Assembly: GCA_964017185.1 (NCBI GenBank)
Contig: OZ024869.1
Coordinates: forward strand, 73,348,008-73,412,007
Direction of reading: 5' to 3'
Source of the DNA: Rugalucina vietnamica
Lineage: Eukaryota; Mollusca; Bivalvia; Lucinida; Lucinidae
DNA length: 64,000 nucleotides
The translations under genes and the position numbers were made by a program. Shown here piece by piece: positions 34,711 to 61,086 of the stretch. Position 1 is the first letter of the stretch, and each line of letters opens with the position of its first letter. The notes under the pieces are model-generated. The model saw nothing but the letters and a program-made list of their open reading frames with translations. It ran no database searches and was not told where the DNA came from.

Positions 34711-34785
34711 ATTTGAGCCGCCTCGTGAGAAAACCAACAATCTGCATATGCGAAAACAAATAGAGCCTGCACAAAACCCCCGCAG

Positions 34786-37700
34786 AAATCCCAGGGCATG
34801 CATTTGTTTCAGTGAAACATTGAAACATTGAAACATAAAGAATATATAGGGCAATAAATCTGTAAAAAATTGTCTAAGTTCTCACTTGGACATGTTTCGA
34901 AACAGATTGAAACATTGAGATTATATAGTGGATCAACTGAAACAAATTGAAACAGAGCCAAAAATGACTAAGTCCGAATTTGAAACGTTTCGCAACAAAT
35001 TGAAACAAAGATAGAGAAAAGGTGAAAATTCCAGGCCATATATTTTTTGTTGCGAAACATTGAAACTTATAGATTATATAGTAAATCAACTGAAACAAAT
35101 TGAAACATACCCAAAAGTCCGAACTTTGAAACGTTTCGAAACATTTCGCAACAAATTGAAACAAAGATAGAGAAAAGGTGAAAATTTCAGGCCATATATT
35201 TTTTGTTGCGAAACATTGAAACATATAGATTATATAGTAAATCAACTGAAACAAATTGAAACAGACCCAAAAAATGACTAAGTCCGAAATTTGAAACGTT
35301 TCGAAACATTTCGCAACAAATTGAAACAAGGTTAGAGAAAAGGTGAAAATTCCAGGCCATATATTTTTTGTTGCGAAACATTGAAACATATAGATTATAT
35401 AGTAAATCAACTGAAACAAATTGAAACAGACCCAAAAAATGACTAAGTCCGAAATTTGAAAAGTTTCGAAACATTTTGCAACAAATTGAAACAAGGTTAG
35501 AGAAAAGGTGAAAATTCCAGGCCATATGTTTTTTGTTGCGAAACATTGAAACATATAGATTATATAGTAAATCAACTGAAACAAATTGAAACATACCCAA
35601 AAATGACTAAGTCCGAAATTTGAAACGTTTCGAAACATTTTGCAACAAATTGAAACAAGGTTAGAGAAAAGGTGAAAATTCCAGGCCATATGTTTTTTGT
35701 TGCGAAACATTGAAACATATAGATTATATAGTAAATCAACTGAAACAAATTGAAACATACCCAAAAATGACTAAGTCGGAACTTTGAAACGTTTCGAAAC
35801 GTTTCGCAACAAATTGAAACAATTAAGGTTAGAGAAAAGGTGAAAATTCCAGGCCATATATTTCTTGTTGCGAAACATTGAAACATATAGATTATATAGT
35901 AAATCAACTCAAACAAATTGAAACAGACCCAAAAAATGACTAAGTCCGAAATTTGAAACGTTTCAAAACGTTTCGCAACAAATTGAAACAAGGTTAGAGA
36001 AAAGGTGAAAATTCCAGGCCATATGTTTTTGTTGCGAAACATTGAAACATATAGATTATATAGTAAATCAACTGAAACAAATTGAAACATACCCAAAAAA
36101 TGACTAAGTCCGAACTTTGGAACGTTTCGAAACGTTTCGCAACAAATTGAAACAAAGATAGAGAAAAGGTGAAAATTCCAGGCCATATATTTTTTGTTGC
36201 GAAACATTGAAACATATAGATTATATAGTAAATCAACTGAAACAAATTGAAACAGACCCAAAAAATGACTAAGTCCGAAATTTGAAACGTTTCGAAACGT
36301 TTCGCAACAAATTGAAACAAGGTTAGAGAAAAGGTGAAAATTCCAGGCCATATATTTTTTGTTGCGAAACATTGAAACATATAGATTATATAGTAAATCA
36401 ACTGAAACAAATTGAAACAGACACAAAAAATGACTAAGTCCGAAATTTGAAACGTTTCGAAACGTTTCGCAACAAATTGAAACAAGGTTAGAGAAAAGGT
36501 GAAAATTCCAGGCCATATGTTTTTTGTTGCGAAACATTGAAACATATAGATTATATAGTAAATCAACTGAAACAAATTGAAACATACCCAAAAATGACTA
36601 AGTCCCAACTTTGAAACGTTTCGAAACGTTTCGCAACAAATTGAAACAATTAAGGTTAGAGAAAAGGTGAAAATTCCAGGCCATATATTTCTTGTTGCGA
36701 AACATTGAAACATATAGATTATATAGTAAATCAACTGAAACAAATTGAAACAGACCCAAAAAATGACTAAGTCCGAAATTTGAAACGTTTCGAAACATTT
36801 CGCAACAAATTGAAACAAGGTTAGAGAAAAGGTGAAAATTCCAGGCCATATGTTTTTTGTTGTGAAACATTGAAACATATAGATTATATAGTAAATCAAC
36901 TGAAACAAATTGAAACAGACCCAAAAAATGACTAAGTCCGAAATTTGAAACGTTTCGAAACGTTTCGCAACAAATTGAAACAAGGTTAGAGAAAAGGTGA
37001 AAATTCCAGGCCATATGTTTTTTGTTGCGAAACATTGAAACATATAGATTATATAGTAAATCAACTGAAACAAATTGAAACATACCCAAAAAATGACTAA
37101 GTCTGAACTTTGGAACGTTTCGAAACGTTTCGCAACAAATTGAAACAAAGATAGAGAAAAGGTGAAAATTCCAGGCCATATATTTTTTGTTGCGAAACAT
37201 TGAAACATATAGATTATATAGTAAATCAACTGAAACAAATTGAAACAGACCCAAAAAATGACTAAGTACGAAATTTGAAACGTTTCAAAACGTTTCGCAA
37301 CAAATTGAAACAAGGTTAGAGAAAAGGTGAAAATTCCAGGCCATATGTTTTTTGTTGCGAAACATTGAAACATAGATTATATAGTAAATCAACTGAAACA
37401 AATTGAAACAGACCCAAAAATGACTAAGTCCGAACTTTGAAACGTTTCGAAACGTTTCGCAACAAATTGAAACAATTAAGGTTAGAGAAAAGGTGAAAAT
37501 TCCAGGCCATATATTTCTTGTTGCGAAACATTGAAACATATAGATTATATAGTAAATCAACTGAAACAAATTGAAACAGACCCAAAAAATGACTAAGTCC
37601 AAAATTTGAAACGTTTCGAAACGTTTCGCAACAAATTGAAACAAGGTTAGAGAAAAGGTGAAAATTCCAGGCCATATGTTTTTTGTTGCGAAACATTGAA

Positions 37701-38060
37701 ACATAGATTATATAGTAAATCAACTGAAACAAATTGAAACAGACCCAAAAATGACTAAGTCCGAACTTTGAAACGTTTCGAAACGTTTCGCAACAAATTG
37801 AAACAATTAAGGTTAGAGAAAAGGTGAAAATTCCAGGCCATATATTTCTTGTTGCGAAACATTGAAACATATAGATTATATAGTAAATCAACTGAAACAA
37901 ATTGAAACAGACCCAAAAAATGACTTAGTCCAAAATTTGAAACGTTTCGAAACGTTTGGCAACAAATTGAAACAATTAAGGTTAGAGAAAAGGTGAAAAT
38001 TCCAGGCCATATGTTTTTTGTTGCGAAACATTGAAACATATAGATTATATAGTAAATTAA
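34786..38060. repeat. Left-arm tandem array, ~165-bp unit, about 20 copies
   Basis: Each unit contains AACAAATTGAAACA, GAAACGTTTCGAAACG, AAAGGTGAAAATTCCAGG, CCATAT and ATTATATAGTAAATCAAC. Unit length is 164-165, with some units 4 bp longer (AATTAAGG instead of AAGG). Long frames through it, up to 459 codons on the minus strand, exist because 165 is a multiple of 3. Confidence 0.95.
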
Positions 38061-40819
38061 AACAATGTTTTCTGAGGAAAACTATGTCCCCCCAACCGTT
38101 TAGTAATTGAAGTGTAGTTACCTTGTGATATGAAGTTTTTCTAGGGAAGACACCATGTAAGGTGTGATAGTTTAAACTTGTTTTGGACCCTGTCTAAAAT
38201 TGGGTCACAATCACCAAATTCTTATAAACTCTGAACCTCCTCACAACAATGCTTCTGAGCAAGTTTGGTCAAAATCCATCAATTAGTTTACAAGATATCG
38301 TATCGGAAAAACTAATTTCAACAGTTTTTATGGACCCGTGACCTTGGAAATTAGGTCAAGGTCATCAAAATCTAATCAACTTTGAGCCTCCTCCAAACAA
38401 TGCTTCTGTGCAAGTTTGGTCAAAATCCATCAACTGGTTTACAAGATATTGCAGTGAAAAGACTAATTTCAACATTTTTTTATGGACTCGTGACCTTGAA
38501 AATTAGGTCAAGGTCACCGAAATCTAATCAACTCTGAGCCTTCTCGCAACAATGCTTCTGTGCAAGTTTGGTCAAAATCCATCAATTGGTTTACAAGTTA
38601 TCGAGTTGGAAAGATTAATTTCAACATTTTTTATGGACTCGTGACCTTAAAAATTAGGTCAAGATCACCAAAATCTAATCAACTCTGAGCCTCCTCCCAA
38701 CAATGCTTCTGTGCAAGTTTGGTCAAAATCCGTCAATTGATTTACAAGATACTGCGTTGGAAAGACTAATTTCAACATTTTTTATGGACTTGTGACCTTG
38801 AAAATTAGGTCAAGGTCACCAAAATCTAGCCGACTCTGCGCCTTCTCGCAACAATGCTTCTGTACAAGTTTGGTCAAAATCCATCCATTCGTTTACAAGT
38901 TATCGCGTTGGAAAGACTAATTTTAACATTTTTTATGGACTTGTGACCTTGATTATTAGGTCAAGGTCACCAAAATATAATCAACTCTGAGCCTCCTCCC
39001 AACAATGCTTCTGTGCAAGTTTGGTCAAAATCCATTGATTGGTTTACAAGATACTGCATTGGAAAGACTAATTACAGTAGCTTAATTAGTCAGCGTATTT
39101 GCGTAATTACGCAATTCAAATAGTAAAAAACCCAATACAAGACGACCCGATTGCGTACAAAAACGCAAAAGAAATCGGCGATACGCAATCCCGGGAAAAT
39201 TCAATGCGTACCGGTTTTTATCAGTACCGGCGTTTATAACGTTTCCGGTTTGCCAGTGCGTAAGCGACCTGGTGGTGAGAATGGTTTCCAGCGCCCGCCA
39301 AAGTATTTCATTACAATATCCGATAATGACGAGATACAGTATTGGGGGAAAATCTCAAAAATGACAAATATGGCGTCAATCTTCCACAAAGCAATTAAAT
39401 TACGATAAAATAACAGGTAGTCTATGGCGATTTGATATCTACACTCATCCTTTCATCACTGGAATTGTAAACGAACGTTTTGACATGTGTCTGGTAGGGA
39501 ATATATGCTTGAAATCACTTTCGATGGAGGGTAAACATGACGTAATGAAAAACGAAAGTAGCGAGTTGGAACTTTGGCTTTTCAAAGTACCTTGGCTGCT
39601 ATCAAATCATTAAGAAAGTTGGCAAATCAGTAATGATCCAGGTTTGTACCTTGTAGCACATGCAAATCAGCTAAATACCATTGACAATGAGTGGTGCCCT
39701 TTCTTACTTGTCCCTTCAGTTCAATACAACAGTGATGCAGGCAATTCTTAAAAATAAACTTAATTAAATAAATGATAAAAAAAATAATTAAACACTAAAT
39801 ACCCAAATAATCTGTTTTCGTGACCATTTACCCAATTGATTTTCCATTTTACCCAATTGATTGAAAACAGAGGGGGTAAAAAATATGAACATACCCAATT
39901 AAAATTTCAGATACCCAATTGAATAAAAAAGGGGTGGGTAATTACCCAATGGTCTAAAAAATTAATTAAGGTACTGTAATTTCAACATTTTTTATGGGCT
40001 CGTGACCTTGAAAATTAGATCAAGGTCACCAAAATCTAATCAACTCTGAGCCTTCTTGCAACAATGCTTCTGTGCAAGTTTGGTCAAAATCCATCTATTG
40101 GTTTACAAGTTATCGCGTTGGAAAGACTAATTTCAACATTTTTTATGGACTTGTGACCTTGAAAATTCGGTCAAGGTCACCAAAATCTAATCAACTCTGA
40201 GCCTCCTCCCAACAATGCTTCTGTGCAAGTTTGGTCAAAATCCATCAATAGGTTTACAAGATATTGCATTGGAAAGACTAATTTCAACAGTTTTTATGGA
40301 CACGTGACCTTGAAAATTAGGTCAAGGTCACCGAAATCTAATCAACTCTGAGCCTCCTCCCAACAATGCCCTTGTGCAAGTTTAGTCAAAATCCATTCAT
40401 TTGTTCAGAAGATATCGCGTCGGAAAACCTAATTTGATCAGTTTTCATAGGCTGGTGACCTTGAAAATTAGGTCAAGGTCACCAAAATCTAATCAACTCT
40501 GAGCCTCCTCCCAACAATGCTCTTGTGCAAGTTTGCTCAAAATCCATTCATTTGTTCAGAAGATATCGCGTCAGAAAACCTAATTTGATCAGTTTTCATG
40601 GGCTGGTGACCTTGAAAATGAGGTCAAGGTCACCAAAATCTAATCAACTCTTTCCCCCCTCCCAACCATGTATCTATGCAAGTTTGGTCAAAATCCATCC
40701 ACTGGTTCAAAAGATATCGCGTAAGAAAGAAGCTACGCGGACGCGGACGCGGACGCCGACGCCGACGGGAACCGCACCAAAAACAATATGTCCCCCACCT
40801 TCGGTTGGGGGGACATAAT
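38061..40819 (-). mobile_element. HINE-like element, family H (GTCCCCCC), inserted in the left arm
   Basis: On the minus strand it starts ATTATGTCCCCCCAACCG, a hairpin closing GGTGGGGGACATA, then GTCGGCGTCGGCGTCC-type repeats. Around ten ~150-bp units follow, each with GGTGACCTTG and TTGTTGGGAGGAGG. The 3' end has the inverted arm CGGTTGGGGGGACATAG followed by the hairpin GTTTTCCTCAGAAAAC. Satellite units resume on both sides. Confidence 0.8.
39074..39977. mobile_element. 904-bp element with ACAGTA ends and AATT duplication
   Basis: TIR ACAGTAGCTTAATTA / TAATTAAGGTACTGT; AATT at 39070-39073 and 39978-39981 restores the host unit GACTAATTTCAAC. An 85-codon frame (39151-39408) is not recognised. 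Superfamily uncertain. Confidence 0.75.
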
Positions 40820-42390
40820 CAACTGAAACAAATTGAAACATACCCAAAAAATGACTAAGTCTGAACTTTGGAACGTTTCGAAACGTTTCGCAACAAATTG
40901 AAACAAAGATAGAGAAAAGGTGAAAATTCCAGGCCATATATTTTTTGTTGCGAAACATTGAAACATATAGATTATATAGTAAATCAACTGAAACAAATTG
41001 AAACAGACCCAAAAAATGACTAAGTACGAAATTTGAAACGTTTCAAAACGTTTCGCAACAAATTGAAACAAGGTTAGAGAAAAGGTGAAAATTCCAGGCC
41101 ATATGTTTTTTGTTGCGAAACATTGAAACATAGATTATATAGTAAATCAACTGAAACAAATTGAAACAGACCCAAAAATGACTAAGTCCGAACTTTGAAA
41201 CGTTTCGAAACGTTTCGCAACAAATTGAAACAATTAAGGTTAGAGAAAAAGTGAAAATTCCAGGCCATATATTTCTTGTTGCGAAACATTGAAACATATA
41301 GATTATATAGTAAATCAACTGAAACAAATTGAAACAGACCCAAAAAATGACTAAGTCCAAAATTTGAAACGTTTCGAAACGTTTCGCAACAAATTGAAAC
41401 AAGGTTAGAGAAAAGGTGAAAATTCCAGGCCATATGTTTTTTGTTGCAAAACACTGAAACATTTAGATTATATAGTAAATCAACTGAAACAAATTGAAAC
41501 AGACCCAAAAAATGACTTAGTCCAAAATTTGAAACGTTTCGAAACGTTTGGCAACAAATTGAAACAATTAAGGTTAGAGAAAAGGTGAAAATTCCAGGCC
41601 ATATATTTCTTGTTGCGAAACATTGAAATACATGTATATAGATTATATAGTACCGTAAATCAACTGAAACAAATTGAAACAGACCCAAAAATGACTAAGT
41701 CCAAAATTTGAAACGTTTCGAAACGTTTCGCAACAAATTGAAACAATTAAGGTTAGAGAAAAGGTGAAAATTCCAGGCCATATATTTCTTGTTGCAAAAC
41801 ATTGAAATACATGTATATAGATTATATATACTGAGAGGAACTAGAAACTTAAGTTTCAAACTTTCCATAGTTTGGTGGTTGGGCTCCGTAAAATCGATTT
41901 TAGAACTGGTAATTTCTTTCCTGGAATAAAAAGATGAGTCACAGCAGAATCGCCTTCAGAAGGTCAGTAAAAGAATAACTGGAGGGTTCAAATCGATTCT
42001 TACGGGGTTCCAACCCAAAGTATAAAAATTAAAAAACTTAAGTTTCTAGTTCCTCTCAGTATAGTATTAAATCAACTGAAACAAATTGAAACAGACCCAA
42101 AAATGACTAAGTCTGAAATTTGAAACGTTTCGCAACAAATTGAAACAAAGTTAGAGAAAAGGTGAAAATTCCAGGCCATATATTTCTTGTTGCGAAACAT
42201 TGAAACATATAGATTATACAGTAAACCAACTGAAACAAATTGAAACAGACCCAAAAATGACTAAGTCCGACTTTGAAATGTTTCGAAACGTTTCACAACA
42301 AATTGAAACAAGGCTAGAGAAGAGGTGAAAATTCCAGGCCATATATTTCATGTTGCGAAACATTGAAACATGTAGATTATATAGATTTGT
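40817..42390. repeat. Left-arm tandem array, continued
   Basis: About nine further ~165-bp units in the same orientation, interrupted by a mariner-like MITE at 41831-42060. Two units carry an extra TACATGTATA stretch. Confidence 0.93.
41831..42060. mobile_element. Mariner-like MITE with TA duplication
   Basis: CTGAGAGGAACTAGAAAC and its exact inverse GTTTCTAGTTCCTCTCAG, with TA on each side inside ATTATATAG of the host unit. TIRs are about 28 bp. Boundaries are good to about 2 bp. Confidence 0.82.
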
Positions 42391-42984
42391 CCAGTCTTAT
42401 ATGTTAATTTGTTTCCAAGCAAGAAATTTACCCATATTCTTATTTTTTCTTTCAATGTGATTTGGACAGGCCACAACACATAAAACATACAAACTGCTAT
42501 GAAATTTTTGCCAGTTTGGGCATACATGTGATATCTCCCTATTTCAGAGGGATCTCCCTATTTTTGAGTAAATCTCCCTATTTGGAATTTCAAAATTTCC
42601 CTATATAACTTAGGCCAAAAAAAAAGTCATTAGATTCTCAGGCCATTCTATTTTTCAAAAAAGTGATGAGGCAGGCAGATTTACATGAGGCAGGTACATG
42701 CATTTTATTTATTAATTTATTTTTCTTTTTTTGATTTTTCAGAAATAAGCAAAATTCTGGTAATCATTAATCATGGCTTTGCCTAGCAAAGACAAAGTCT
42801 TTAAGACAAGATTCAGTAGTATAGATAGTAAATTCATATAAAAACAAAGTAATGTGAAACTAAAGTCAATTTTGATTGTACCCTGTTAAACCCCTTCATA
42901 GAGATCTTTAATTGTAAGTCACTGGTATACCCCCCTGCAATATTCCAGGGAAGATGAACAGTTGCGCCACAAATTTTTTGGTAA

Positions 42985-43189
42985 AAGTCTATATCTCTTG
43001 AATATGTAGATGGATCAAGTTGATATTTTGCATGTTGGTAGATACATGTATTGGTCTGAAGTTTTTTGCTGTACCATCACTGCCCCCCTGAGAGGCCTTG
43101 AGGTCAAGGTCATGGGTCATAGATTTTAAAAAATTTAGTGACAAAGCACAAGTCAGGCGAGCTACGCTGTCCTGGGACAGCTCTTATTG
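42985..43189 (+). mobile_element. HINE-like family F, 3' fragment
   Basis: AGTCTATATCTCTTGAA and TTGAGGTCAAGGTCA core, then CAAGTCAGGCGAGCTACGC and the hairpin CTGTCCTGGGACAG, CTCTTATT. It matches the 3' end of the full copy at 55146-56259. Confidence 0.7.
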
Positions 43190-43799
43190 AATTAAATTTT
43201 CAACGAATTACCTAACCGGTTAGGTAACGAGTCATCTCGATCCAACTCGCATTGTAACATTTCACTATCACACATGCGGTTTCAACGTTTGCTTATTTGT
43301 TTGTAATGCACCAGTCATTGGTAACCATTGCGGCCTGACATGCTTGGATCCAGAGGGGGTGGGGCGGGACCCCCTCGATTTCCTAGATTTTTGCAATGGA
43401 CTCCCTGTCAAAAAAAAAGGTTCTGGATCCGTGTATGCCATTCTCCCCGACGAGCCCCCCTGATGAGCCTTAATTGTCATTTTGGCGCACCACCAGTGAA
43501 CTATTCAGGTACAGGACAATTACTTTTTCATTGCCCCGTAGTTCAGAGGAAACTTTTATTAGGAAGGGCGGGACAGACCTCCAGTCGATCCCCTAAGGAA
43601 TTGGGGTATAATAGTGCCCCAAAAAGTGAAAAAAAAGTCAGTATCCTCGTAATTGGCAGGGCTGTAGTAGCAAATGACTGATGCATACAGCCATGTCAGA
43701 AAATACCCATTTCCATAGATTTTCTTTGCACAAAAATCGAGATGACTTGGGAACTGCTAGCTTAAATGGGCCAAGTAGACCCACTTCCGAAATGGTCCA
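43190..43799. other. Unassigned spacer DNA with a 20-bp palindrome
   Basis: TTACCTAACCGGTTAGGTAA at 43208-43227 is a perfect palindrome. Frames of 60-117 codons here have no recognised product. Confidence 0.4.
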
Positions 43800-44794
43800 A
43801 TCAAATTTACGATTTACTAGTCCGGCAGGAATATGGGATATTTTCACTGGACCTGGTAATCAGGTATAAAGTTTTTTTCTTGATGGATTCCTGTACTATA
43901 GGCATTGTCTTTCAAGAATCTGACTGATGACGCTTTGTCATCATTGGGGATTTTGAGAAATTCAAGATGGCGTCCAATATGTCTGCCAAATACAGGGTTT
44001 TCAACTATAATTTTAGTTATAATGATTTTAAAGTATTTCTGTGCTTATTTTGTCATCAAATCATGACTGATGATTAAAGTTGAAGCTTCACTCTTTGTAA
44101 GAAAGCTGTTCACATCAATCTTTTTAAGATGGCGTCCAAAATGGCCACCAGAAATATATTTTCAACCAAATCATTAACAAGAATGACCTAAAAGTATTGT
44201 TGTGTTTATTTTAATGACATTAATAATGGGGGACAATTAGAGGTGAAGCTAATTCTTTTTAAGAAAGCTGTAAACATAAGATGTTTCAAGGTGGCATCCA
44301 AAATGGCTGCCAGAAATATGCGATTTTTCTTTAGTTTTCATGTCGGTGCAAAATTTGCAAAAAAAGGCCTGGGTATGATGATGCCATGTATCTTTTAAGT
44401 CCATTAAGAAGTGCTTTGCCTATATTTTAATGCATAAAAGCTTTGCTGCATCTCAATATCTAATGAAAAGTACAGATTTAACACAATAGAAGACTATATG
44501 TTCACAGTTCTAATATTGTATTACTGAACATGAAATGACGAGTCGGGGAATATGATCCACGAATAAATGGTTTCAATGTAATTGTATATTTAACACAAAG
44601 CAGTTATCGTTAGGCAATAAGTTCAACAGTAGCATAAACATAAACAGTGTAGCATGATAGGTTGACACAAAGATTTGTTAGCTTGTATGTGTCTGTCCAA
44701 TTTGATCAGAGTCTTTGCTTCATACGTGGAAATCATAGAGACAATCTACTAAGCACACAGTGGGTACTTATATGGTTTATAATGTCCAGGTTTC

Positions 44795-44846
44795 CATATT
44801 AAGAAAAAAACAGTCTTCGGGGTTTCTGACGAGGTCTGACACAGAA
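44795..44846. mobile_element. M1 fragment at the LINE break
   Basis: AGTCTTCGGGGTTTCTGACG and AGGTCTGACAC match an M1 arm, directly at the point where LINE homology ends. Confidence 0.5.
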
Positions 44847-49205: not shown

Positions 49206-49384
49206 TGAATAAACATCCCAGTTAACGACTCTTCAGCCGTGCCAGGAAGGAACCGCCGCTTCCTGGGTACTAACCAGTTCTACGGAAATTAAAATGTCTG
49301 CTCAAAGACAAAACACTGGTGCCAGCATGCCCCCACCCCCGACCTCGCCGGATCAGGAGTCAAACTATGCCACGTTGCTATAAG
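49206..49384 (-). mobile_element. S1 SINE, old copy, reverse orientation
   Basis: GTGAATAAACATCCCAG, CTCTTCAGCCGTGCCAGG, and GGAGTCAAACTATGCCACG follow the S1 layout in reverse with much divergence. Confidence 0.5.
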
Positions 49385-50950
49385 TTTAAGCTCACCTGAG
49401 CCTAAGGTGAGCTTATAGGATGGCCATGCTCCGTCGTCCGTCCATCGTCGTCCACCATTTCAAAGATCTTCTCCTCTGAAACCGCTTGGCCAATCAAGGA
49501 GCATCCTTAGGAAGGGGGAAAGAAAGTATAAATGGTCCAGGTCACATGACAAAGATGACCGTCATGGCTGTAAATAGTAAAAACCTTTAAAAATCTTCTC
49601 CAGAACCAGAAGTCCTATGATTTTAAAACTTGACATGGAACATCAGAGAGAGGAGCTCTACAAAAGTTATATAAATCATGACCTTTGGATGACCCTGGCA
49701 TATTTTACGGCAAGGTCAACATAGGTGGCCCATGCATTTGAATGGGGAAAATTGTCAAAATGACATTTTAAGGGAAAAACTAATAGAAAATGGGTAAATG
49801 GACTGAAGATTTATGATTCTGAAAAATTTTGTACACTAGGGGCTGGTCTGCCACCACCCGGGGGGAATATACATGTATATTACCAAAATCAAAGGCCTTC
49901 TTCTCTGAAATCGCTTGGCCAATCAAAGCCAAACGTCAGGTAGAGCATCCATATAGTTTATATAAATGGTCCAGGTCATATAACCAAGATGGCTGCCATG
50001 GCTATAACTAGCAAAAACCTTTAAAAATCTTCTTCTCCAGAACCAGAAGGCCTATGATTTTGAAACTTGAAAGGAAGCATCAGGGAGAGGAACTCTACAA
50101 TTTTCATATAAATGGCCCTGTGATGACCTTGACCTATTTTACGGCAAGGTCAACATAGGTGGCCTATGCATTTGAATGGGGAAAATTGTCAAAAACTTGA
50201 AGAAAATGGGCAATGGACTGAAGAGTTATGATTCTGAAAAAAATGGACCACAGGGGCTGGTCTGACCCTTTGCCGGGGGTAATATACACGTATATCACCA
50301 TAATATTTAAAGATCTTCTTCTCTGAAACCGCATGGCCAATCAAAGCCAAACTTTATATGAAGCAGCTATAGGAAGGGGGGAACCGGTGCATTACGAAAA
50401 CACGCCGATGCAAACATTTTCACATAAAAAATGAAAATATCAGTGGAAAAGTTATGATATTTTCCCTATTTTTGCTCAAAGCATAGGTTGTGGGTACACG
50501 TTAGAACCGCCTTACCGAGGCTAGATCAGCCTCACCGAGGCGGTTCTAACGAGTACCCGCAATCTATGTTTTGGACCAAAAATAAGAAAAATTCGTATAC
50601 CCCTGCATACCCCAGTTTTACTATATAACAATAGGGTTGAAGGGGGTATTCAGTATTACTTAAATAATCCGGGTCACATGACCAAGATGGCCGCCATGTC
50701 CATATATGGTAAAAACCCTTCAAAAATCTTCTCCGGAAACGGTGGATCAATGTCAACAAACTTGGCACATAGAATTGTGGACTAGAGTACTACAATGTAT
50801 ATATAAATTATGACAGTGTGATGACCTTGACCTATTTGACGGCAAGTTCAAAATAGGTCGCCCATGACCATAATAGTCAAACAAGTTTATTGGTATACAT
50901 GTATATCCCAATTCTCAGGTGAGCGTTTACAGGACCATTGTCCTCTAGTT
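49385..50950 (+). mobile_element. HINE-like element, family H1, copy D
   Basis: AAGCTCACCTGAGCCTAAGG hairpin, GTCCGTCCATCGTCG, units with GACCTTGACCTATTTTACGG, and 3' CTCAGGTGAGCG then AGGACCATTGTCCTC. It is interrupted by an M2 copy. Confidence 0.8.
50392..50658. mobile_element. M2 MITE inside H1 copy D
   Basis: CATTACGAAAACACGCCG at the left. The palindromic centre AGAACCGCCTTACCG / CGAGGCGGTTCTAACG encloses an extra GCTAGATCAGCC. The right end is near GGGGGTATTCAG. Confidence 0.8.
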
Positions 50951-51017
50951 GTTCTTTCATTACGTACAGGATCAACGTTTGCATGGAGAAGAACTCTATA
51001 AGCTATGCTTTCGTTCT

Positions 51018-51195
51018 AATCATGTTTTTTTTTTCTTTTTATTCAGTTTTACGTCCCTTTCAAGCTTTTTCACTCATATCGAGACGAATCAATCGGTAGG
51101 TGGGGCGAAAACCGGAGTACCCGGGGAAAAACCACCCGACACACCCGCAAGCAGAACATGGCTTGTCTCACATATGAATTCGTGCCCCGTGCGAG
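51018..51195 (-). mobile_element. S2 SINE, reverse, 5' truncated
   Basis: Plus-strand T run then CAGTTTTACGTCCCTTTC, CACACCCGCAAGCAGAAC and GGCTTGTCTCACATATG. The tRNA head is mostly gone. Confidence 0.7.
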
Positions 51196-52711
51196 GCGCG
51201 AACCTACATCATGTTCGTCATGTACCTTTAGCCAATGTATGTAGATATGTTATTTGTGAACCTGAATAAAAATGTTTAAACTAAAACTACAGGATCAACA
51301 GCCCAGGTCATATAGAGACGGACAGTCATTATCATTTTCACACCAAAAGCCTCCCAGAGGCATGGCAACGAGTTTGTTGTGCACATTTCTTTCACCACTA
51401 ATAAATGCTCTTCTTGAATCTACATTACAAGTCTATGTACGTTATTCATAATTTGTTTTGCATGTTGTCATAGAGGACCTTTTACAAAGGATTTCACTTC
51501 GCCACACTTGAGAGTGAGAGAGACAATCATGATAAATATATTCTTGACCATATATTCATGAAAGAAATGCATCCATACATTACACCATATGTTTTACATG
51601 TAATAATCTACAAACATGCGTAATTTACTTGGTGTTTGAATATGAAAGGCGAAAGGCATTTGGAGCTCTGCCTATATCTGACACTATCAAACTTCATAAA
51701 GCTAGCTAAGGTTTTTAATTGTCGAATTTAAAGAACGGAAACAAAGGCACGGAGAGTTTCTCCGTTAACATGCACCTGATATGGACCTTTCGCTCTATAA
51801 AACATATTAACAAGGTTTCCTAATGTCGTGGCCAAAGCGTAGTGAAAGTGCTCATGAACCAACGTTCCTTGTGGTTTTATCACGCCATATTTAGCCATAA
51901 ATGGTCTTCAGCCAACCATCTATGGACTCTAAACCATACAAAATTGGCTTTAACAATAACTGCATCCAGTTTTCCTTAAAATAAGGCGAGAATTGGTTTT
52001 TATTATCCGTGTTTGTTGCACCGAATGGTCCGAGTTTGTTTCACCTGCTTGATAATTTGAACCGTGGTATGTTGCACCATATCAAATGAGAGTACCCAAT
52101 TTGAAATAGTTATTATTCTCTTTTTTATAATTTTGTGTGGGTTCTTGTAATGGTAACATTTGAAGCGATCCCCGATCCTCCGAAAAACATCAATTTGGTC
52201 ATATTATCGTGCTTTAATAATGATTTACAGACATTCTTACCAAGATTTTTCTCTTTTCGTGCATCCAAGTCAGATTTAGAAGCCTATATTTCTAGAACTA
52301 ATGGAATTTATGAGACAGGATTTTAGGTAAACATTTGCAAAGTTATGTACTTTTTCATTGTATCTCAAACAAAAATCAACTCAGTCGATATTCATTATAA
52401 TCAAAGATAATAAATACCCACTCTTTTTCCCCGCGGTTCAAAATACTATTGTTTATATCCGCGTTTAGAAGACCATTTCGCGTTTGTTGTATCTGGATGA
52501 ATGGTGTGTAGTAGCACTGTTTCCAATACACAGTAGCACCTGTGAACTATTGATAATGAGATATATCCCCTCCAATATACACTGAAAAAAAAGTTATAAG
52601 AGGCCACTTTTCAAACTTATTTTGTGTTTCTAAGCAATGTTCAAAATTGCACGATTTTTTGCCTAAACACGTGTCTTTCAAGTCAGTAAAGTTCCAAAGT
52701 GTTCAGAAAAT

Positions 52712-53750
52712 ATACTCATCAAAAGAAGTTTAGCACCAGTTAATATTTTTCTCATTTTAAAATAATGTTTAGTATACATTTTTTTCAAATAAACTTTTAA
52801 AAATTGATACTATCCTAAAGGGCTAGTTTTTGTGAACAACAAAGCAATAATTTGTCTTGAAAAGATTAAGTAAAAATGTGCAAAAATGCATGTTTTTGAA
52901 AACACCAGAATTTGGGATGCAGCAAAAAGCCCACACCTCTATTTCTGGGCATCTAAACCTGAATTCATTTCACATCCTCATTCGAGACAATGAAAGCAGT
53001 CATTTAAAGCAAAAAAAAAATAAAAATTGAATTTTTGGGACAAACATGCCATTTTTGACCAAAAATAACGATTTTTGAGACTTTGTTTCAATCCTCAGAT
53101 AAAGCTAAAGTCACTCATCTCTCCAACAAAATGGGTTGATATAGCATCAAACACGGCATGCAGCACCCCTGACTGCTAAACTGAAGGTACTGCTTTTCAA
53201 CCCGTCCAAATTCAGACTTTTTAAAAAGCTGCATTTCAAAAAGTGCTGATGCCCTATCTTTGACATGAGATCAACTTTAAGAGAAAGAAAAGATGTGGTA
53301 TGTTTTGGTTTCAAAACATTCCATATTGATCCAAAATTGATAGGGATATTGGTTTTACTCATTTTCTCCAATATTTATGATTTTTTGTCAAAAAATGTAA
53401 TTTTCTCAAAAAATGCATTTTTACCTAAATTTTGAGATTCTTTCAATTGTTTTTGGCTCAACCATTTGCTTTGGGGCTCTTGTTTGTGAATTTGGAAACA
53501 AAAATGTGTTCTGAACACTGTGACGTTTGAGGTAGAATTTTTTCGATGTTCAAATTTTCAGTATTGACAGAAAAAGGGCATTTTCAAATTTTCTTAAAAT
53601 CGTTTCCGCATTAGTTTTTGTCTTATCGCACACTTTATCAAACTCTCTAAGACTGCGCAAATTCAAAAAGGTAGGTTTAAAATAAGTCAAAATGTCACTT
53701 AAAAATATGAAAAAAAATCTAAATGGTGCTAAACTTCTTTTGAGGAGTAT
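52712..53750. mobile_element. 1.04-kb mariner-like element
   Basis: TACTCATCAAAAGAAGTTT AGCACC at the left and GGTGCTAAACTTC TTTTGAGGAGTA at the right: a ~25-bp TIR with a TA at each tip. The interior is AT-rich without a transposase. Confidence 0.8.
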
Positions 53751-54610
53751 AATTTTCTTTCACTAAACACGTTTTTGGAGTAAAAATGCAAAAATCAATG
53801 TTTTTGAATAAAAAAATGGATAAAGCACAACATTTATTGAAATTAGGAACGGTGTCTTCAAAGGGGCCCTTCTGGCTTAGAAAAACATCAAACATTCGAA
53901 TTTTCTCTACTGGTAGACTTTTTACGCATCTTTAAAAATCGCTATTTTTGAGATTTTTTGGAAAATTCATCAATGTGCCTCTTAAACATCTTAATCCCTG
54001 TTAAATTTGCTTGATGATGCCTGGAAATGAGACATATAACTCGAATGGGCTATTTTAGACTATTTTCGAGGACAAACAGGTCACAGTTGCCACACACTTC
54101 CGTCTTCAATGCCAATTTTTTCATGAACAAAATAACGAAATTAGTGGACGATTTTTTAAATTTTCAAAGCTTATCAGAGTCTAGTATTAGACCTCAATAA
54201 TCGCTGAAAATTTCAATTATAATGCAACCGGAGATGAACAAAGTTTGTATTCAAATTGCATGCAAAAAGCTGAATTCCTGTTATTCATGTTGCTGTCTTC
54301 TTGCATGTACAAAACAGAAACGAAGAGTCTTATTGCAGCAATACATCTGATTTAATTTTATCTTGCATCATGGCAGTCAGTAGCACTTTCGAATAAATTA
54401 AAATGTAAAACGCACCGTCATAATATGACATTTAATTTGATGTTAATTAAGTGTGACTTTTTGAAAAGAAGATACATTTACTCATGCTTGGTCTGTGTGA
54501 GATATATTACACATTTTGGAATGCAGAAACTCACAGAGCCTCTGTTAGACATTGGTTTATTCATTTGATCATGAATTTTAATTGATCATATTTTACTTTC
54601 TGAACTAGAA
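53751..54610. other. Unassigned AT-rich DNA inside the 5.2-kb element
   Basis: No recognised repeat, exon or transposase motif. Confidence 0.5.
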
Positions 54611-57600
54611 GAAACCAAGTAGCCCAAGGGCAACGATCGCTCACCTGAGAGTCAACAAGTACAGTCACTGGACAAAGTAATTGGGGTTTTTACCACATAT
54701 GGGTATGGTGGCCATCTTGGTCATGTGACCTTGAAACCCTACTTACATCAGCAGAAGAGCTCTTGTCTGGATTGTGTATCCTCTTTTCTGCCATTTTGGT
54801 TCACTTGAAAAAATCATCTAACAAAGTCAGGGTCCTATAATGACCCCCGGGGTGGGGCCATATTTGACCCCAGGGGCAAGATTGGCAGGATTTATGTAGA
54901 GCTCCACATGACAATGTTGTATATCAAATATACAAGCTTTGTGTCATGCTGTTGCAGAGAAGATTTTTTTTCATATATTTCCATTATAAGTCTATGGTAG
55001 ATAATGACATGCCTGGGGCGTGGCCTGTATGGACCCCAGGGGCACCATTGGCAGCATTTATAAAGGAGAGTATTATACATTGGTCCACACAACATATGGA
55101 AACTCTGGGCCATATGGTTTCGGAGAAGAAGATTTTTTTTTTTTGTTTTTAGCTCGCCTGCACGAAGTGCATAGAGCTATTGTAGTCACCTCGGTTGTCC
55201 CCGTTTACGTTTACGTGTACGTCCGCGTCACACTTTCGTTTAAAGTTTTTTATAAGTCTATATCTCTTGACCATGTTGATGGATCAAGTTGATACTTTGC
55301 ATGTTGCTAGATATTGGTCTGAAGTTTTACGCAGTACCATCATGACTCACCCTGGGTGACCTTGAGGTCAAGGTCACGGACTTAGAAATTTTGTGTTTAA
55401 GTTTTTGGTTAAAGTTTTTGTAAGTCTATATCTCTTGACCATATATATGGATTGAGTTGATACTTTGCATGTTGCTAGATATTGGTCTGAAGTTTTACGC
55501 AGTACCAATATGACCCACCCTGGATGACCTTGAGGTCAAGGTCACGGACTTAGAAATTTTGGGTTTAAGTTTTTGGTTAAAGTTTTTGTAAGTCTATATC
55601 TCTTGACCATATTGATGGATTGAGTTGATACTTTGCATGTTGCTAGATATTGGTCTGAAGTTTTATGCAGTACCATCATGACCCACTCTCGTTGACCTTG
55701 AGGTCCAGGTCACAGACTTAGAAATTTTGTGTTTAAGTTTTTGATTTAAGTTTTTGTAAGTCTATATCTCTTGACTATGTTGATTGATCGAGTTGATACT
55801 TTGCATGTTGGTAGATATTGGTCTGAAGTTTTATGTAGTACCATCATGACCTACCCTGGGTGACCTTGAGGTCAAGGTCACAGACCTTTTGTGTTAAATT
55901 TTTTGGTTAAAGTCTAAATCTCTTGAACATGTTGATGGATAAAGTTGATACTTGCATGTTGATAGATATTGGTCTCAGGTTTTATGCTGTACATCACAAC
56001 TCACCTGGATGACCTTGAGGTCAGGGTCACGGACTTGGAAGTTTTGTGTTTAAGTTTGGGTTAATGTTTTTATAAGTCTATATCTCTTGAACATGTAGAT
56101 TGATCAAGTTGATACTTTGTATTGGTCTGAAAATTTATGTTGTACCATCATGACCCACCTGAGTGACGTTGAGGTCAAGGTCAGGGGTCATAGATTGTAA
56201 CAGATGTAGTGGCAAAGCACAAGTCAGGCGAGCTACACTGTCCTGCGACAGCTCTTATTCCCATGATGCCCCCAGGGTGGTGCCCGTATGGACCCCAGGG
56301 GCACGGTTGGCAGAATTTATAGCAGGATTTATAAAGAGGACCACTATACATTGCTACACACAAAATATGAAAGCTTTGGGTCTTGTGGTTTCGGAGAAGA
56401 TTTTTTAAAGTTTTTCCCATGACGCCCCTGGGGCGGGGCCCGTATGGACCCCAGGGGCATGGTTGGCAGGATTTATAAAGAGGACCACTATACATTGCTA
56501 CACACAAAATATGAAAGCTCTGGGCTGGGCCTTGTGGTTTCGGAGAAGATTTTTTTTATGTTTATCCCATTGTAAGTCTATGGGAGCTAATGACCCCCGG
56601 GGCGGTGCCATTTTTGACCCCAGTGGCATGATTGGCAGGATTTATAAAGAGGACCACTATACATTGCTACAAGCAAAATATGAAAGCTTTGGGCTTTGTG
56701 GTTTCGGAGAAGATTTTTTTTATGTTTTACCCATGACCCCCCCCCCCCTCAGGCGGGGCCCATATGGACCCCAGGGGCAAGTTTGGCAGGATTTATAAAG
56801 AGGACCACTATACATTGCTACACACAAAATATGAAAGCTTTGGGTCTTGTGGTTTTGGAGAAGAAGATTTTTTAAAGTTTTTCCCACGACGCCCCCGGGG
56901 CGGGGCTCGTATGGACCCCAGGGGCACGGTTGGCAGGATTTATAAAGAGGACCACTATACATTGCTACACACAAAATATGAAAGCTTTGGGTCTTGTGGT
57001 TTCGGAGAAGAAGATTTTTTAAAGTTTTTCCCATGACGCCCCCGGGGCGGGGCCCGTATGGACCCCCAGGGGCACGGTTTTCAGGATTTATAAAGAGGAC
57101 CACTATACATTGCTACTGACAAAATATGAAAGCTCTGGGCCTTGTGGTTTCGGAGAAGAAGATTTTTTTATGTTTCTCCCATTGTAAGTCTATGGGAGCT
57201 AATGACCCCTGGGGCGGGGGCATTTTTGACCTCAGGGGCCTGGTTGGCAGGATTTATAAAGAGGACCACTACCCATTGCTAAATACAAAATATGAAAGCT
57301 CTGGGCCTTGTAGTTCTGGAGAAGAAGATTTTCTTGTATGTTTTTCCCATGACGCCCCTGGGGTGGGGCCTGTATGGATCCCAGGGGCATGGTTGGCAGG
57401 ATTTATAAAGAGGAGTACTATACAATGCTACACACAAAATATGAAAGCTCTGGGGCTTGTGGTTTTGGAGAAGAAGATTTTTTTATGTTTTTCCCATTGT
57501 AAGTCTATGGGAGCTATCTGTTGCCATGGAAACCAGAGTTCTGATCTGACCTGGCCCAAAGCCTAATGCAACCATTCCCCCTCCTCAATGATGCTTTAGA

Positions 57601-57728
57601 TAAAATTTGATCATGATTGGCCTTGTTGTCTTAGTGATATTCACGTTTGAAAATGTGAACGGACGGACGGACGCTCAACTACTATACTATAAGCTCACCT
57701 GTGAGCCTTCGGCTCAGGTGAGCTAAAA
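54611..57728 (-). mobile_element. HINE-like element, family E
   Basis: On the minus strand it starts TTTTTAGCTCACCTGAGCCG (5' hairpin with CTCACAGGTGAGC), then GTCCGTCCGTCCG. Around ten units follow with GGGGTCCATACGGGC and the complement of AAGAGGACCACTATACATTG. The 3' end has the arm CTCAGGTGAGCGATCG and the hairpin TTGCCCTTGGGC. It shares terminal arms with H1 but has a different core and 3' hairpin. Confidence 0.78.
55146..56259 (+). mobile_element. HINE-like element, family F, nested in E
   Basis: AGCTCGCCTGCACGAAG hairpin, a TTTACGTTTACGTGTACG simple repeat, and about six ~165-bp units with TTGAGGTCAAGGTCACGG. 3' arm CAAGTCAGGCGAGCTACAC, then hairpin CTGTCCTGCGACAG. It interrupts an E tandem unit between T residues (TTTTT ... 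TTCCCATGA). Confidence 0.8.
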
Positions 57729-57763
57729 ATAAAAGGCGGCCTCTTATAACTTTTTTCATTGTA

Positions 57764-58390
57764 CATAGATGACAATAAATCTCTCCAATACAATACACAG
57801 TAGCATGTTTCCAATACGCAGAAGCACCTGTGAACTATTGATAATGAAATATATTCCCTCCAATATACGAGGGAATATATTTCATTATCAATAGAAAGGT
57901 TAGAGGTTAACCTTTGACTTAGTCATTTTTGTGTCTGTTTCAATTTGTCCCAAAGCTTTCATATTTTGTGTGGTTTCATATTTTGTGTGTAGCAATGTAT
58001 AAGCAAATACGTTTCGAAATGTTTCAAATTCGGACTTAGCCATTTTTGGGTCTGTTTCAATTTGTTTCTTCTTTGGGTCTCGTACATGGCTGCTTTATTA
58101 CCTCAAATACACAGTAGCAGGTTTCCAATACACAGTAGCACCTGTCCTGTGAACTATTGAAAAAGAAATATTTCCTCTAATATACATGGATGCTTTATTG
58201 CCTCAAATACTCACAGCAGCATGTTTCCAATACACAGAAGCACCTGTGAACTATTGATAAGGAAATATATCCCCTCCAATATACAAAGATGGCAATAAAT
58301 TTCTCCAATACACAGTAAGCACTGTTTCAAATACACAATAGCTCCTGTGAACTATTGATAATGAAGCAGCTTCAATATACACTGATTGAA
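57764..58390. repeat. R2 tandem repeat, right blocks, with a chimeric patch
   Basis: R2 motifs at 57764-57894 and 58080-58390. Between them (57895-58079) are scraps of the 165-bp satellite (GACTTAGTCATTTTTG, GTTTCAATTTGT) and of family E (CATATTTTGTGTG, TAGCAATGTATA). Confidence 0.75.
57835..57894. repeat. Perfect hairpin, 26-bp arms, 8-nt loop
   Basis: Arm 57835-57860 (CTATTGATAATGAAATATAT then TCCCTC) is exactly inverted at 57869-57894; the loop is CAATATAC. It is a head-to-head junction of two R2 units. Confidence 0.92.
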
Positions 58391-58472
58391 TAAACAGATA
58401 AATACACAAGGAAAAACAAAAAATGTGTTAAAAAACTAAAGAATTGTTTGATGTATTGAAGGTTCGCCTCTG

Positions 58473-58516
58473 TAATAATAATAATAATGATAATAATAAT
58501 AATACTAATAATAAAA
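58473..58516. repeat. (AAT)n microsatellite
   Basis: AATAATAATAATGATAATAA and similar. 58391-58825 otherwise shows nothing recognised. Confidence 0.9.
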
Positions 58517-58825
58517 GAAGCCAGTTTCACTAACACCTGAAAAGGTTCTATCTAGGCTATCACGCCTGTTGCAATAATGTTGCTCTTCATGATATCTTGC
58601 TGACATTTTAGAAAAAATGAAATAACACAAAAGAACAAAACTTTTCTTTTATATAAACTCTAAGATATATACTGTTTTGTTTATATCATCTGACCAAGTG
58701 TGAATCTTTTAGTCTGTATACTACCTCCAAAATATCATAATAATTACATGACTTTGTACAAGCTCAATGATTAAATAAAATAACATTGGTATCCTCTTCA
58801 TGATCTCCATTGTCAATACAAAAAA

Positions 58826-60650
58826 TATATGGCCTGGAATTTTCACCTTTTCTCTAACCTTGTTTCAACTTGTTGTGAAACGTTTCGAAACGTTTCAAAT
58901 TCGGACTTAAGTCATTTTTGGGTCTGTTTCAATTTGTTTCAGTTGATTTACTATATAATCTATATGTTTCAGTGTTTCAAAACAATAAATATATGGCCTG
59001 GAATTTTCACCTTTTCTCTAACCTTTTTTCAATTTGTTGCGAAACGTTTCGAAACGTTTCAAATTTTTGACTTAGTCATTTTTTGGGTCTGTTTCAATTT
59101 GTTTCAGTTGATTTACTATATAATCTATATGTTTCAATGTTTCGCAACAAAAAACATATGGCCTGGAATTTTCACCTTTTCTCTAACCTTGTTTCAATTT
59201 GTTGCGAAATGTTTCGAAACGTTTCAAATTTCGGACTTAGTCATTTTTTGGGTCTGTTTCAATTTGTTTCAGTTGATTTACTATATAATCTATATGTTTC
59301 AATGTTTCGCAACAAGAAATATATGGCCTGGAATTTTCACCTTTTCTCTAACCTTAATTGTTTCAATTTGTTGCAAAACGTTTCGAAACGTTTCAAAGTT
59401 GGGACTTAGTCATTTTTGGGTCTGTTTCAATTTGTTTCAGTTGATTTACTATTATAATCTATATGTTTCAATGTTTCGAAACAAAAAACATATGGCCTGG
59501 AATTTTCACCTTTTCTCTAACCTTGTTTCAATTTGTTGCGAAACGTTTCGAAACGTTTCAAATTTCGGACTTAGTCATTTTTGGGTCTGTTTCAATTTGT
59601 TTCAGTTGATTCCCTATATAATGTATATGTTTCAATGTTTTGAAACAAAAAATATATGGCCTGGAATTTTCACCTTTTCTCTAACCTTGTTTCAATTTGT
59701 TGCGAAACGTTTCAAATTCAGAGTTAGTCATTTTTGGGTCTGTTTCAATTTGTTTCAGTTGATTTACTATATAATCTATATGTTTCAATGTTTCGAAACA
59801 AAAAACATATGGCTTGGAATTTTCACCTTTTCTCTAACCTTGTTTCAATTTGTTGCGCAACGTTTCGAAACGTTTCAAAGTCGTACTTAATCATTTTTGG
59901 CTCTGTTTCAAATTGTTTCAGTTGATTCACTATATAATCAATATGTTTCAATGTTTCGCAACAAAAAACATACGGCCTGGAATTTTCACCTTTTCTCTAA
60001 CCTTGTTTCAATTTGTTGCAAAATGTTTCGAAACTTTTCAAATTTCGGACTTAGTCATTTTTTGGCTCTGTTTCAATTTGTTTCAGCTGATCCACTACAT
60101 AATCTATATGTTTCAATGTTTCGCAACAAAAATTATATGGCCTGGAATTTTCACCTTTTCTCTAACCTTGTTTCAATTTGTTGCGAAATGTTGCGAAACA
60201 TTTCAAAGTCGGATTTAGTCATTTTTGGCTCTGTTTCAAATTGTTTCAGTTGATTCACTACATAATCTATATGTTTCAATGTTTCACAACAAAAAACATA
60301 TGGCCTGGAATTTTCACCTTTTCTCTAACATTGTTTCAATTTGTTGCGAAACGTTTCGAAACGTTTCAAAGTTTGGACTAAGTCATTTTTGGCTCTATTT
60401 CAAATTGTTTCAGTTGATTCACTATATAATCTAAATGTTTCAATGTTTCGAAACAAAAAATATATGGCCAGGAATTTTCACCTTTTCTAAAACCTTGTTT
60501 CAATTTGTTGCGAAATGTTTCGAAACGTTTTGAAAGGTTTCAAAGCTTGGACTTAGTCATTTTCTGGTTAAATTATCTAAGTATTTTGGCCTATATAATC
60601 TATATGTTTCAATGTTTCACTGAAACAAATGGATGGCCTGGGATTTCTGC
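58826..60650. repeat. Right-arm tandem array, ~165-bp unit, inverted
   Basis: About eleven units reading CCTGGAATTTTCACCTTT, CAATTTGTTGCGAAACG and GACTTAGTCATTTTTGGG, i.e. the left-arm unit on the other strand. It ends in CACTGAAACAAATGGATGG and the shared terminus. Confidence 0.95.
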
Positions 60651-61086
60651 GGGGTTTTTATGCAATATATGAAAACAAAGGCGCAGATAGCTTCGCGGTA
60701 ACCGCGAAGCTGATCAGCTCCTTTGTTTTCGCTACACGGATAGTACAATTCCTCTACTTTCTAAGTCCAAAATTTCCAGTCTCTAGCCATCGTCTGTGCT
60801 TGTACAGGCCGGTTTGTGTCAGACCTGTTGGTTTTCCCACGAGGCAGCTCATTTACTTGATCATGAAAATTTTGTCTCGGGTATAGAAGTCATTTGTGTC
60901 ATTTGATAATTAATGATTTTGAGATTCTTAAAGTTAGCAATAATAATTATGATTTCTTTTATAATGTGTAAAATCTTGTCTTGCATGAATGTCGGTTGCT
61001 TTTGCTCGGTCTGGTGAAAATAGACATTGGTTGTTAGCTGTTTTTTGTTAGCTGTCTGATTTTAGTGGTGAGTTGATACTTGATCT

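What the first reader, a model, noticed from the sequence alone, without database searches (positions are those of the whole stretch)
34711..60854. A MITE split by a 25.9-kb Foldback-like insertion, with both target duplications readable
The outer pair ATTT/ATTT (34711-34714, 60851-60854) belongs to an M1 MITE. The inner pair GAAAACAAA (34752-34760, 60671-60679) belongs to the insertion. Rejoining the halves gives a normal M1 copy. The insertion has inverted arms of ~165-bp tandem units and inverted tips sharing CCCCGCAGAAATCCC. A 9-bp duplication with tandem-repeat arms is the Foldback/Mutator-related pattern of Drosophila FB. To my knowledge such an element of this size would be notable in a mollusc.
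Basis: partly seen in the sequence, partly recalled or inferred. Interest (0 to 1): 0.85.

Follow-up and report, generated by a model that had tools for sequence, protein, structure and literature searches.

The report
Huge jumping-DNA family with mismatched ends
A 25.9-kb piece of DNA that split a smaller mobile element belongs to a family of very large jumping elements without a recognisable transposase gene, whose two ends and two repeat-filled arms differ from each other, and the jump copied 8, not 9, bases of the target.

Summary
The insert (34761-60671, 25,911 bp) split an M1 MITE; the rejoined halves align across the junction with M1 copies elsewhere in the window. It is one of a family: the 24-base left tip has 33 sites in the 1.09-Gb genome (27 without mismatch, reversed control 0). 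Of 22 tip pairs read, 19 have an exact 8-bp target duplication, one is 7/8, two have none; the family's fixed ends exclude a constant 9 bp. Ten other full copies are 12.0-18.7 kb with no transposase-like ORF (by eye, ORFs of 130 aa or more). Four insertions absent from 12 other copies (10.9 kb) explain much of this copy's extra length. The outermost bases are constant but differ between ends (TAGAGCC / CATATAT), and the arms' units form two classes, with a few A-like units in B arms. Best reading: a giant non-autonomous foldback-type transposon with two unequal ends, moved by an unlinked transposase. The 9-bp Foldback/Rehavkus signature is not met; superfamily open. New variant of a known kind.

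The parts
34711..34714 (.). ATTT, left target duplication of the M1 MITE
   Evidence: 4-bp A/T duplications read by eye in some other M1 copies
34715..34760 (+). left half of the split M1 MITE
34753..34760 (+). AAAACAAA, left 8-bp target duplication of the insert
34761..34785 (+). A-end terminal signal TAGAGCCTGCACAAAACCCCCGCAG
   Evidence: first 7 bases the same in 22 of 22 pairs, few changes after; 24-base pattern at 33 genome sites
34786..34981 (+). A tip inward of the terminal signal, homologous to the tandem unit from element position 26
34982..38060 (+). A arm, first block of ~164-bp units
38061..40816 (.). nested insertion 1 with 151-bp tandem arrays and a hairpin end TATGTCCCCC...GGGGGACATA; Helentron-like by eye
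40817..41828 (+). A arm, second block
41829..42059 (.). nested insertion 2, short element with inverted ends ACTGAGAGGAACTAG; TA target by eye
42060..42384 (+). A arm, third block
42385..58817 (.). interior without a transposase-like ORF, in part collinear with the family interior
43818..47681 (.). nested insertion 3, itself with inverted ends and weak tandem units; empty site present in copy C5a
48454..52508 (.). nested insertion 4, inverted ends containing TTCATCCAGATACAACAAACGCG
58003..58068 (-). stray part of an arm unit inside the interior, B orientation; the ten other full copies also have one
58818..60646 (-). B arm, ~163-bp units plus the inner tip; of 10 scored units 5 are B-like, 3 A-like, 2 undecided
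60647..60671 (-). B-end terminal signal CATATATTGCATAAAAACCCCGCAG; its first base pairs with the G at 60671
60672..60679 (+). AAAACAAA, right 8-bp target duplication
60672..60850 (+). right half of the split M1 MITE
60851..60854 (.). ATTT, right target duplication of M1

Best explanation
The insert is a copy of a low-copy family of giant non-autonomous cut-and-paste DNA transposons with foldback anatomy. A transposase made by another, unlinked element recognises two different ends (A: TAGAGCC-TGCAcAAAAcCCCCGCAG; B: CATATAT-TGCAtAAAAaCCCCGCAG), joins them and inserts the element through an 8-bp staggered cut, which leaves the 8-bp duplication. The 8 to 27 arm units on each side are diverged copies of the inner tip and probably act as extra binding or pairing sites. 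This copy landed in an M1 MITE and carries four nested insertions. Shown: element boundaries, 8-bp duplication, family, lack of a transposase-like ORF in the copies read, end asymmetry, two unit classes. Inferred: cut-and-paste, mobilisation in trans, arm function, unequal roles of the ends.
For: 19 of 22 paired copies have exact 8-bp duplications and one has 7 of 8; pairs were chosen by contig, orientation and distance, not by duplication. Joined flanks of 5 of 22 copies (window, C13, C16, C10, C3b) align across the join to repeats of the window; the other 17 gave no such alignment. Termini are constant. Ten other full copies share the plan of inverted unit arms. C15 and C10 are 99.05% identical over 6.3 kb of interior, so some copies are fairly recent. 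Tip and unit are homologous (outer 60 bases: 0 or 1 of 1000 shuffles as good; 140 bases: 0 of 1000). A-arm units: 202 of 206 nearest to A-arm units of other copies, 4 undecided; B-arm units: 104 of 117 nearest to B, 7 nearer A, 6 undecided. On a tree of 323 units the arm label changes 6 times against 83 or more in 200 shuffles. Short copy L052 has A-type inner sequence on both sides yet keeps TAGAGCC on one end and CATATAT on the other (by eye).
Against: No autonomous partner or transposase was found, so the superfamily is open. Two of 22 copies (C4, C8) have no duplication. In 13 of 22 the base after the right duplication is T, the same as the element's first base, and in 5 of 22 the base before the left one is G, so single copies can often be read as 9 bp; only the fixed ends across copies decide for 8. 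Copy C1a is 60 kb between tips and carries a 739-aa ORF with a YqaJ nuclease domain, also above cut-off for a viral alkaline exonuclease family, 5.6 kb inside its A tip; its middle was not read. Several A and B tips have no partner in my lists. No population data. Only 10 of 55 candidate window ORFs of 60 aa or more went to Pfam, and no ORF of the other full copies except that of C1a.
Confidence: 0.86

Rival explanations
1. It is a Mutator-like foldback element (Muta1, Tetris or Rehavkus sort), moved by a MULE transposase whose cut is 8 bp here.
For: Anatomy: terminal motif, subterminal tandem repeats, no ORF in non-autonomous copies, as described for Tetris and Muta1. The genome holds MULE-domain genes with long open frames (59 matches). 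No palindromic target motif.
Against: Exactly 8 bp in all 19 exact duplications. Muta1 in yeast gave 8 bp in 21 and 9 bp in 39 of 60 events; at that rate 19 of 19 has probability 2e-9, though another MULE may differ. Rehavkus is listed with 9 bp. No MULE match within 203 kb of a listed tip. Muta1 had little or no target preference, whereas here there are weak base biases near the site, not tested for significance. The FB4 end AGCTCAAAGAAGC (PMC9682801) does not resemble either tip by eye.
Confidence: 0.36
2. It is a hAT element that took on foldback anatomy.
For: Constant 8-bp duplication (as recalled for hAT); the A end TAGAGCCTGCA resembles the hobo end CAGAGAACTGCA (sequence seen in PMC9682801) and fits the hAT rule YARNG (recalled). 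hAT-domain genes with long open frames exist (116 matches).
Against: The B end CATAT breaks YARNG at the third and fifth base. The hAT duplication preference nTnnnnAn (recalled) is not seen: T at position 2 in 6 of 19, A at position 7 in 4 of 19. The nearest hAT match is 158 kb from a listed tip (150 of 199 candidates scored). The resemblance covers one end and about 11 bases and was not tested against chance.
Confidence: 0.32
3. It is a P-superfamily element like Galileo, the foldback-like member of that group.
For: P elements make 8-bp duplications and Galileo 7, in three copies 8, with long and in one copy tandemly repeated terminal repeats.
Against: No palindromic target motif: centred palindromicity 0.22 against 0.26 in controls, 20 sites. 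The duplications do not follow GTATTAC (by eye). The A end does not start with CA as the P end CATGATGAAAT does. P transposase genes were not searched for.
Confidence: 0.13
4. Not a transposon: an inverted satellite pair or an assembly join that happens to lie in M1.
For: Arms are satellite-like and could mislead an assembler; no reads were seen.
Against: Paired tips at 22 places on 14 contigs, 19 with exact duplications; reversed-pattern control 0.
Confidence: 0.02

Closest known systems
Tetris (Drosophila virilis foldback transposon, PMC4079207; passages seen)
   Same: Non-autonomous; terminal repeats of a flank domain plus ~220-bp tandem units; units share a 37-bp stretch with the flank domain; no conserved ORF in its complete copies; autonomous partner unknown; duplications of 8-9 bp in complete copies.
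   Different: Here full copies are 12-19 kb, the duplication is a constant 8 bp, the outermost bases differ between ends, and the arms keep separate unit classes. I saw no statement on these last two points for Tetris.
Muta1 and other mosquito MULEs; Muta1 is called a type 2 foldback element (PMC5225508; passages seen)
   Same: Terminal motif followed by subterminal tandem repeats.
   Different: 3.2 kb with a transposase, 12-bp repeats, 8 or 9 bp duplications. No transposase found here.
Rehavkus (PMC6446971; passages and table rows seen)
   Same: Mini-satellite associated with a terminal repeat.
   Different: 9-bp duplication, PHD-finger transposase, mini-satellite described before the 3' repeat only, hosts given as arthropods and annelids.
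Galileo (P superfamily, PMC4168063; passages seen)
   Same: Foldback-like; the longest D. willistoni copy has ~140-bp tandem repeats in both terminal repeats.
   Different: Duplications mostly 7 bp with consensus GTATTAC and a palindromic motif; not seen here.
hobo (hAT); only its end sequence was seen (PMC9682801)
   Same: A end TAGAGCCTGCA resembles CAGAGAACTGCA; 8-bp duplication (recalled for hAT).
   Different: B end does not fit; giant, armed and without a transposase here.
Pearl / HINE elements of bivalves (PMC7492417; passages seen)
   Same: Tandem units of ~160 bp inside a mobile element.
   Different: Those are Helentrons with a central array and no long inverted arms; nested insertion 1 here looks like that kind by eye.

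Membership tests
Foldback / Rehavkus (Mutator-related) | 9-bp target duplication (Rehavkus: table; Drosophila FB: recalled) | tested here: not met
   19 of 22 exactly 8, one 7 of 8, two none; a constant 9 bp is excluded by the fixed ends
Foldback / Rehavkus (Mutator-related) | long inverted arms built of tandem repeats | tested here: met
   11 of 11 full copies
Mutator-like (MULE) in general | 8-11 bp target duplication | tested here: met
   8 bp; range from PMC6446971
Mutator-like (MULE) in general | MULE transposase in the element or in an autonomous relative with the same tips | tested here: not met
   None by eye among ORFs of 130 aa or more in 11 full copies or 90 aa or more in two interiors; nearest of 59 MULE matches 203 kb from a listed tip; tip lists (34 A, 32 B) are not exhaustive
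hAT | 8-bp target duplication (recalled) | tested here: met
hAT | both termini of the form YARNG (recalled) | tested here: not met
   A end TAGAG fits, B end CATAT does not
hAT | hAT transposase in the element or in a relative with the same tips | tested here: not met
   nearest of 116 matches 158 kb away; 150 of 199 candidates were scored and the tip lists are not exhaustive
P superfamily / Galileo | palindromic target motif around the duplication | tested here: not met
   20 sites
P superfamily / Galileo | P-type (THAP) transposase | not tested
   no search made
Non-autonomous foldback element (structural class, like Tetris) | terminal motif, inverted tandem-repeat arms, target duplication, no transposase ORF | tested here: met

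The most novel reading that the evidence does not exclude
A giant (12-19 kb, perhaps up to 26-60 kb) non-autonomous foldback transposon whose two ends are chemically different and play different roles. Its arms resist homogenisation between sides, so the element is polar rather than palindromic, and it may be moved by a hAT transposase or an undescribed one instead of a Mutator transposase.
Probability: 0.3. Interest if true: 0.7.

Novelty: new variant of a known kind. Interest (0 to 1): 0.52.

Why it matters
Foldback elements are poorly classified; Tetris seeded satellite DNA and related elements are linked to chromosome inversions (PMC4079207, passages). This family offers some 20 comparable copies with exact duplications, constant but unequal ends, and arm units that record which arm they came from, so end function, arm exchange and satellite growth become testable by counting. 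It also shows DNA without a recognisable transposase moving in pieces of 12-19 kb, above the ~6 kb of cargo at which transposition is said to lose efficiency, although the same passage notes cargoes of 100-200 kb moved in artificial constructs (PMC6431247, passage). The correction from 9 to 8 bp shows how one chance base can misplace a transposon.

Tried and rejected
Rejected: 9-bp duplication. A first count of private sequence, 13,914 bp against ten copies, fell to 11,334 bp once two further interiors (C13, C12a) were added; four blocks of it, 10,906 bp, are taken as insertions, the other two (172 and 256 bp) not. A search for diagnostic columns between A and B units (80% in each class) found none; nearest-neighbour and tree tests were used instead. 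Target palindrome: none; weak biases were seen at 20 sites (third and second base before the duplication purine 17 and pyrimidine 18, T just after it 13) and not tested further. Coding content: Pfam on 10 of 55 interior window ORFs of 60 aa or more outside named repeats gave nothing above cut-off (weak Exo_endo_phos, E 0.23, in 44780-45052, LINE-like by eye). Rfam at gathering scores: nothing. Exact patterns of the unit and tip found nothing in viral contigs, M1 nothing there, the unit nothing in prokaryote contigs; expected for eukaryotic DNA. Four B-tip loci with the window's own B tip at 99-100% (C14, C8, C2, C5) were read for 4-5 kb inward; no long arm and no A tip in opposite orientation was seen there.

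Left unfinished: the whole-genome pattern search for the B tip did not complete; the middle of copy C1a and the unpaired A tips were not read; P transposases were not searched.
Full report
What was checked. M1 is a dispersed MITE. When the two halves are joined through GAAAACAAA, the joined sequence aligns across the junction with many other M1 copies of the window (for example 89% over 203 bp with 25901-25699, 88% over 198 bp with 62973-62776). In an alignment with 15 other copies the region reads straight on in most. I take the insertion into M1 as shown.

Family. The window is G000:C1:73348008-73412007 of a 1.09-Gb assembly in 47 contigs. Left-tip and right-tip searches gave many loci; the tool says that such counts are lower bounds. 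I paired A and B tips on one contig in opposite orientation within about 60 kb, 22 pairs on 14 contigs with the window included, and read their ends. A 24-base A-tip pattern with up to 3 mismatches has 33 sites, 27 without mismatch, against 0 for the reversed pattern. Several A and B tips stay unpaired and were not followed.

Duplication length. Of the 22 pairs, 19 have exact 8-bp duplications, one (C11) 7 of 8, and two (C4, C8) none. Single copies can mislead: in 13 of 22 the base after the right duplication is T, which is also the element's first base, and in 5 of 22 the base before the left duplication is G, which is also its last. But all 22 begin TAGAGCC and end ATATATG; 7 of the 19 exact cases exclude the T, 15 exclude the G, and 4 (C5a, C13, C7a, C1b) exclude both. 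The window copy is one of those where the G matched by chance. The true duplication is AAAACAAA and the element is 34761-60671, 25,911 bp. For 5 of 22 copies the joined flanks align across the junction with repeats found in the window; the other 17 gave no alignment across the join.

Anatomy. The A end begins TAGAGCCTGCACAAAACCCCCGCAG and the B end CATATATTGCATAAAAACCCCGCAG. From TGCA inward the two are inverted copies with few differences; the outer 7 bases are constant within each end and different between ends in the 22 pairs; two of the 33 genome-wide A sites depart in those bases. Inward lie arms of mostly 163-164-bp units: 13-27 units in A arms and 8-16 in B arms of 11 full copies. The unit is homologous to the tip from element position 26 on, so the outer 25 bases look like a terminal signal set in front of a diverged unit. 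Ten other full copies are 12.0-18.7 kb. With C15 as query their interiors are collinear; larger shared blocks are mostly 91-99% identical, lower in C5a and the window, where some shared blocks fall to 72-75%. ORFs of 130 aa or more, after leaving out those with arm-repeat peptides by a text filter, are few: one of 433 aa in C7a, reverse-transcriptase-like by eye, and ones of 130-170 aa in C12b, C4, C7a and the window. Two further interiors (C13, C12a; ORFs of 90 aa or more, same filter) gave no transposase-like ORF by eye. Smaller exons would be missed.

The window copy. Four blocks absent from 12 other copies compared, two of them by interior only, 38061-40816, 41829-42059, 43818-47681 and 48454-52508, total 10,906 bp. 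Copy C5a holds the uninterrupted site of the third. Without them the element is about 15.0 kb. Whether they came before or after the jump into M1 is not known.

Two ends, two arms. Units were assigned by their nearest relatives in other copies: 202 of 206 A-arm units are A-like and 4 undecided; 104 of 117 B-arm units are B-like, 7 are A-like (window 3, C5b 3, C5a 1) and 6 undecided. No single column separates the classes at 80%. On a tree of all 323 units the arm label changes 6 times against at least 83 in 200 shuffles, while the copy label changes 217 times against 228 or more in 100 shuffles. So the two arrays are old and separate, travelled with the element, and exchange rarely, in the seen cases from A to B. 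In the copy L052, about 850 bp, the inner part of the B side is A-like while the outermost bases are still CATATAT (by eye). The asymmetry of the very ends has thus survived exchange, which suggests that the ends have unequal roles. That is inference.

How it works, most likely. A transposase supplied by another element binds the terminal signals, perhaps helped by the arm units, and moves the element by an 8-bp staggered cut. Exact duplications and 99% identity between two interiors point to fairly recent movement. A partner was looked for: 59 MULE-domain matches (all 123 candidates scored) and 116 hAT-domain matches (150 of 199 candidates scored) exist, many with long open frames, but the nearest to one of 34 A or 32 B tips listed are 203 kb and 158 kb away. 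No autonomous member was found.

Compared with what is known. By anatomy it is closest to Tetris, also non-autonomous, with tandem-unit arms and no ORF (passages), and to Muta1-type MULEs (passages). The 9-bp signature given for Rehavkus (table) is not met. A constant 8 bp and the hobo-like A end favour hAT; the B end and the lack of the hAT duplication preference speak against it. Galileo's palindromic target is not seen. I leave the superfamily open. Paper searches for Rehavkus with mollusc, Rehavkus with tandem repeats, foldback with bivalve, foldback with 8-bp, non-autonomous foldback in invertebrates, long terminal repeats with mollusc, and hAT with foldback listed no paper that I recognised as describing this family; only listings and passages were read, and the library lacks most subscription journals.

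Limits. The B-tip pattern search did not complete; some tips have no partner in my lists; the middle of the 60-kb copy C1a was not read; no reads or other individuals could be examined.

Noticed in passing
window 43818-47681: A nested element with inverted ends TAGTCCrGCAGG, 139-bp inverted repeats (85%) and weak ~160-bp tandem units; the empty site in copy C5a suggests a TAC target duplication (by eye). A second, smaller foldback-like element inside the first.
   Followed up: partly
window 48454-52508: A nested insertion with inverted ends containing TTCATCCAGATACAACAAACGCG and a possible 5-bp duplication TAGTA (by eye).
   Followed up: partly
window 38061-40816: A nested insertion with two 151-bp tandem arrays and a terminal hairpin TATGTCCCCC...GGGGGACATA, like bivalve Helentron (HINE) elements by eye.
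   Followed up: partly
L079:3824-6040 (G000:C1:62699823-62702039): A 739-aa open frame with a YqaJ-like nuclease domain (Pfam E 3e-20; also PF01771 viral alkaline exonuclease, E 1e-6) and a SWIM-like motif by eye, inside the 60-kb copy C1a, 5.6 kb from its A tip.
   Followed up: partly
L052 (G000:C5:21654623-21655862): A nearly palindromic relative of about 850 bp whose arms are both A-like inside but whose outermost bases are still A and B type; target duplication 7 of 8 (by eye).
   Followed up: partly
G000, 20 target sites: Weak base biases around the target: purine 17 of 20 and pyrimidine 18 of 20 at the third and second base before the duplication, T 13 of 20 just after it; not tested for significance.
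   Followed up: no
window, whole: M1 MITEs are dense: 15 further copies were aligned from 64 kb, some with 4-bp A/T target duplications by eye; some are internally deleted.
   Followed up: partly
window 31408-32120: A 32-bp minisatellite of about 22 copies that stays open in several frames.
   Followed up: no
L075 near G000:C2:67422451: A B tip with the window's own B-tip sequence lies in the tail of what looks like another M1 copy (by eye), without a long arm; a deletion derivative or a related small family.
   Followed up: partly
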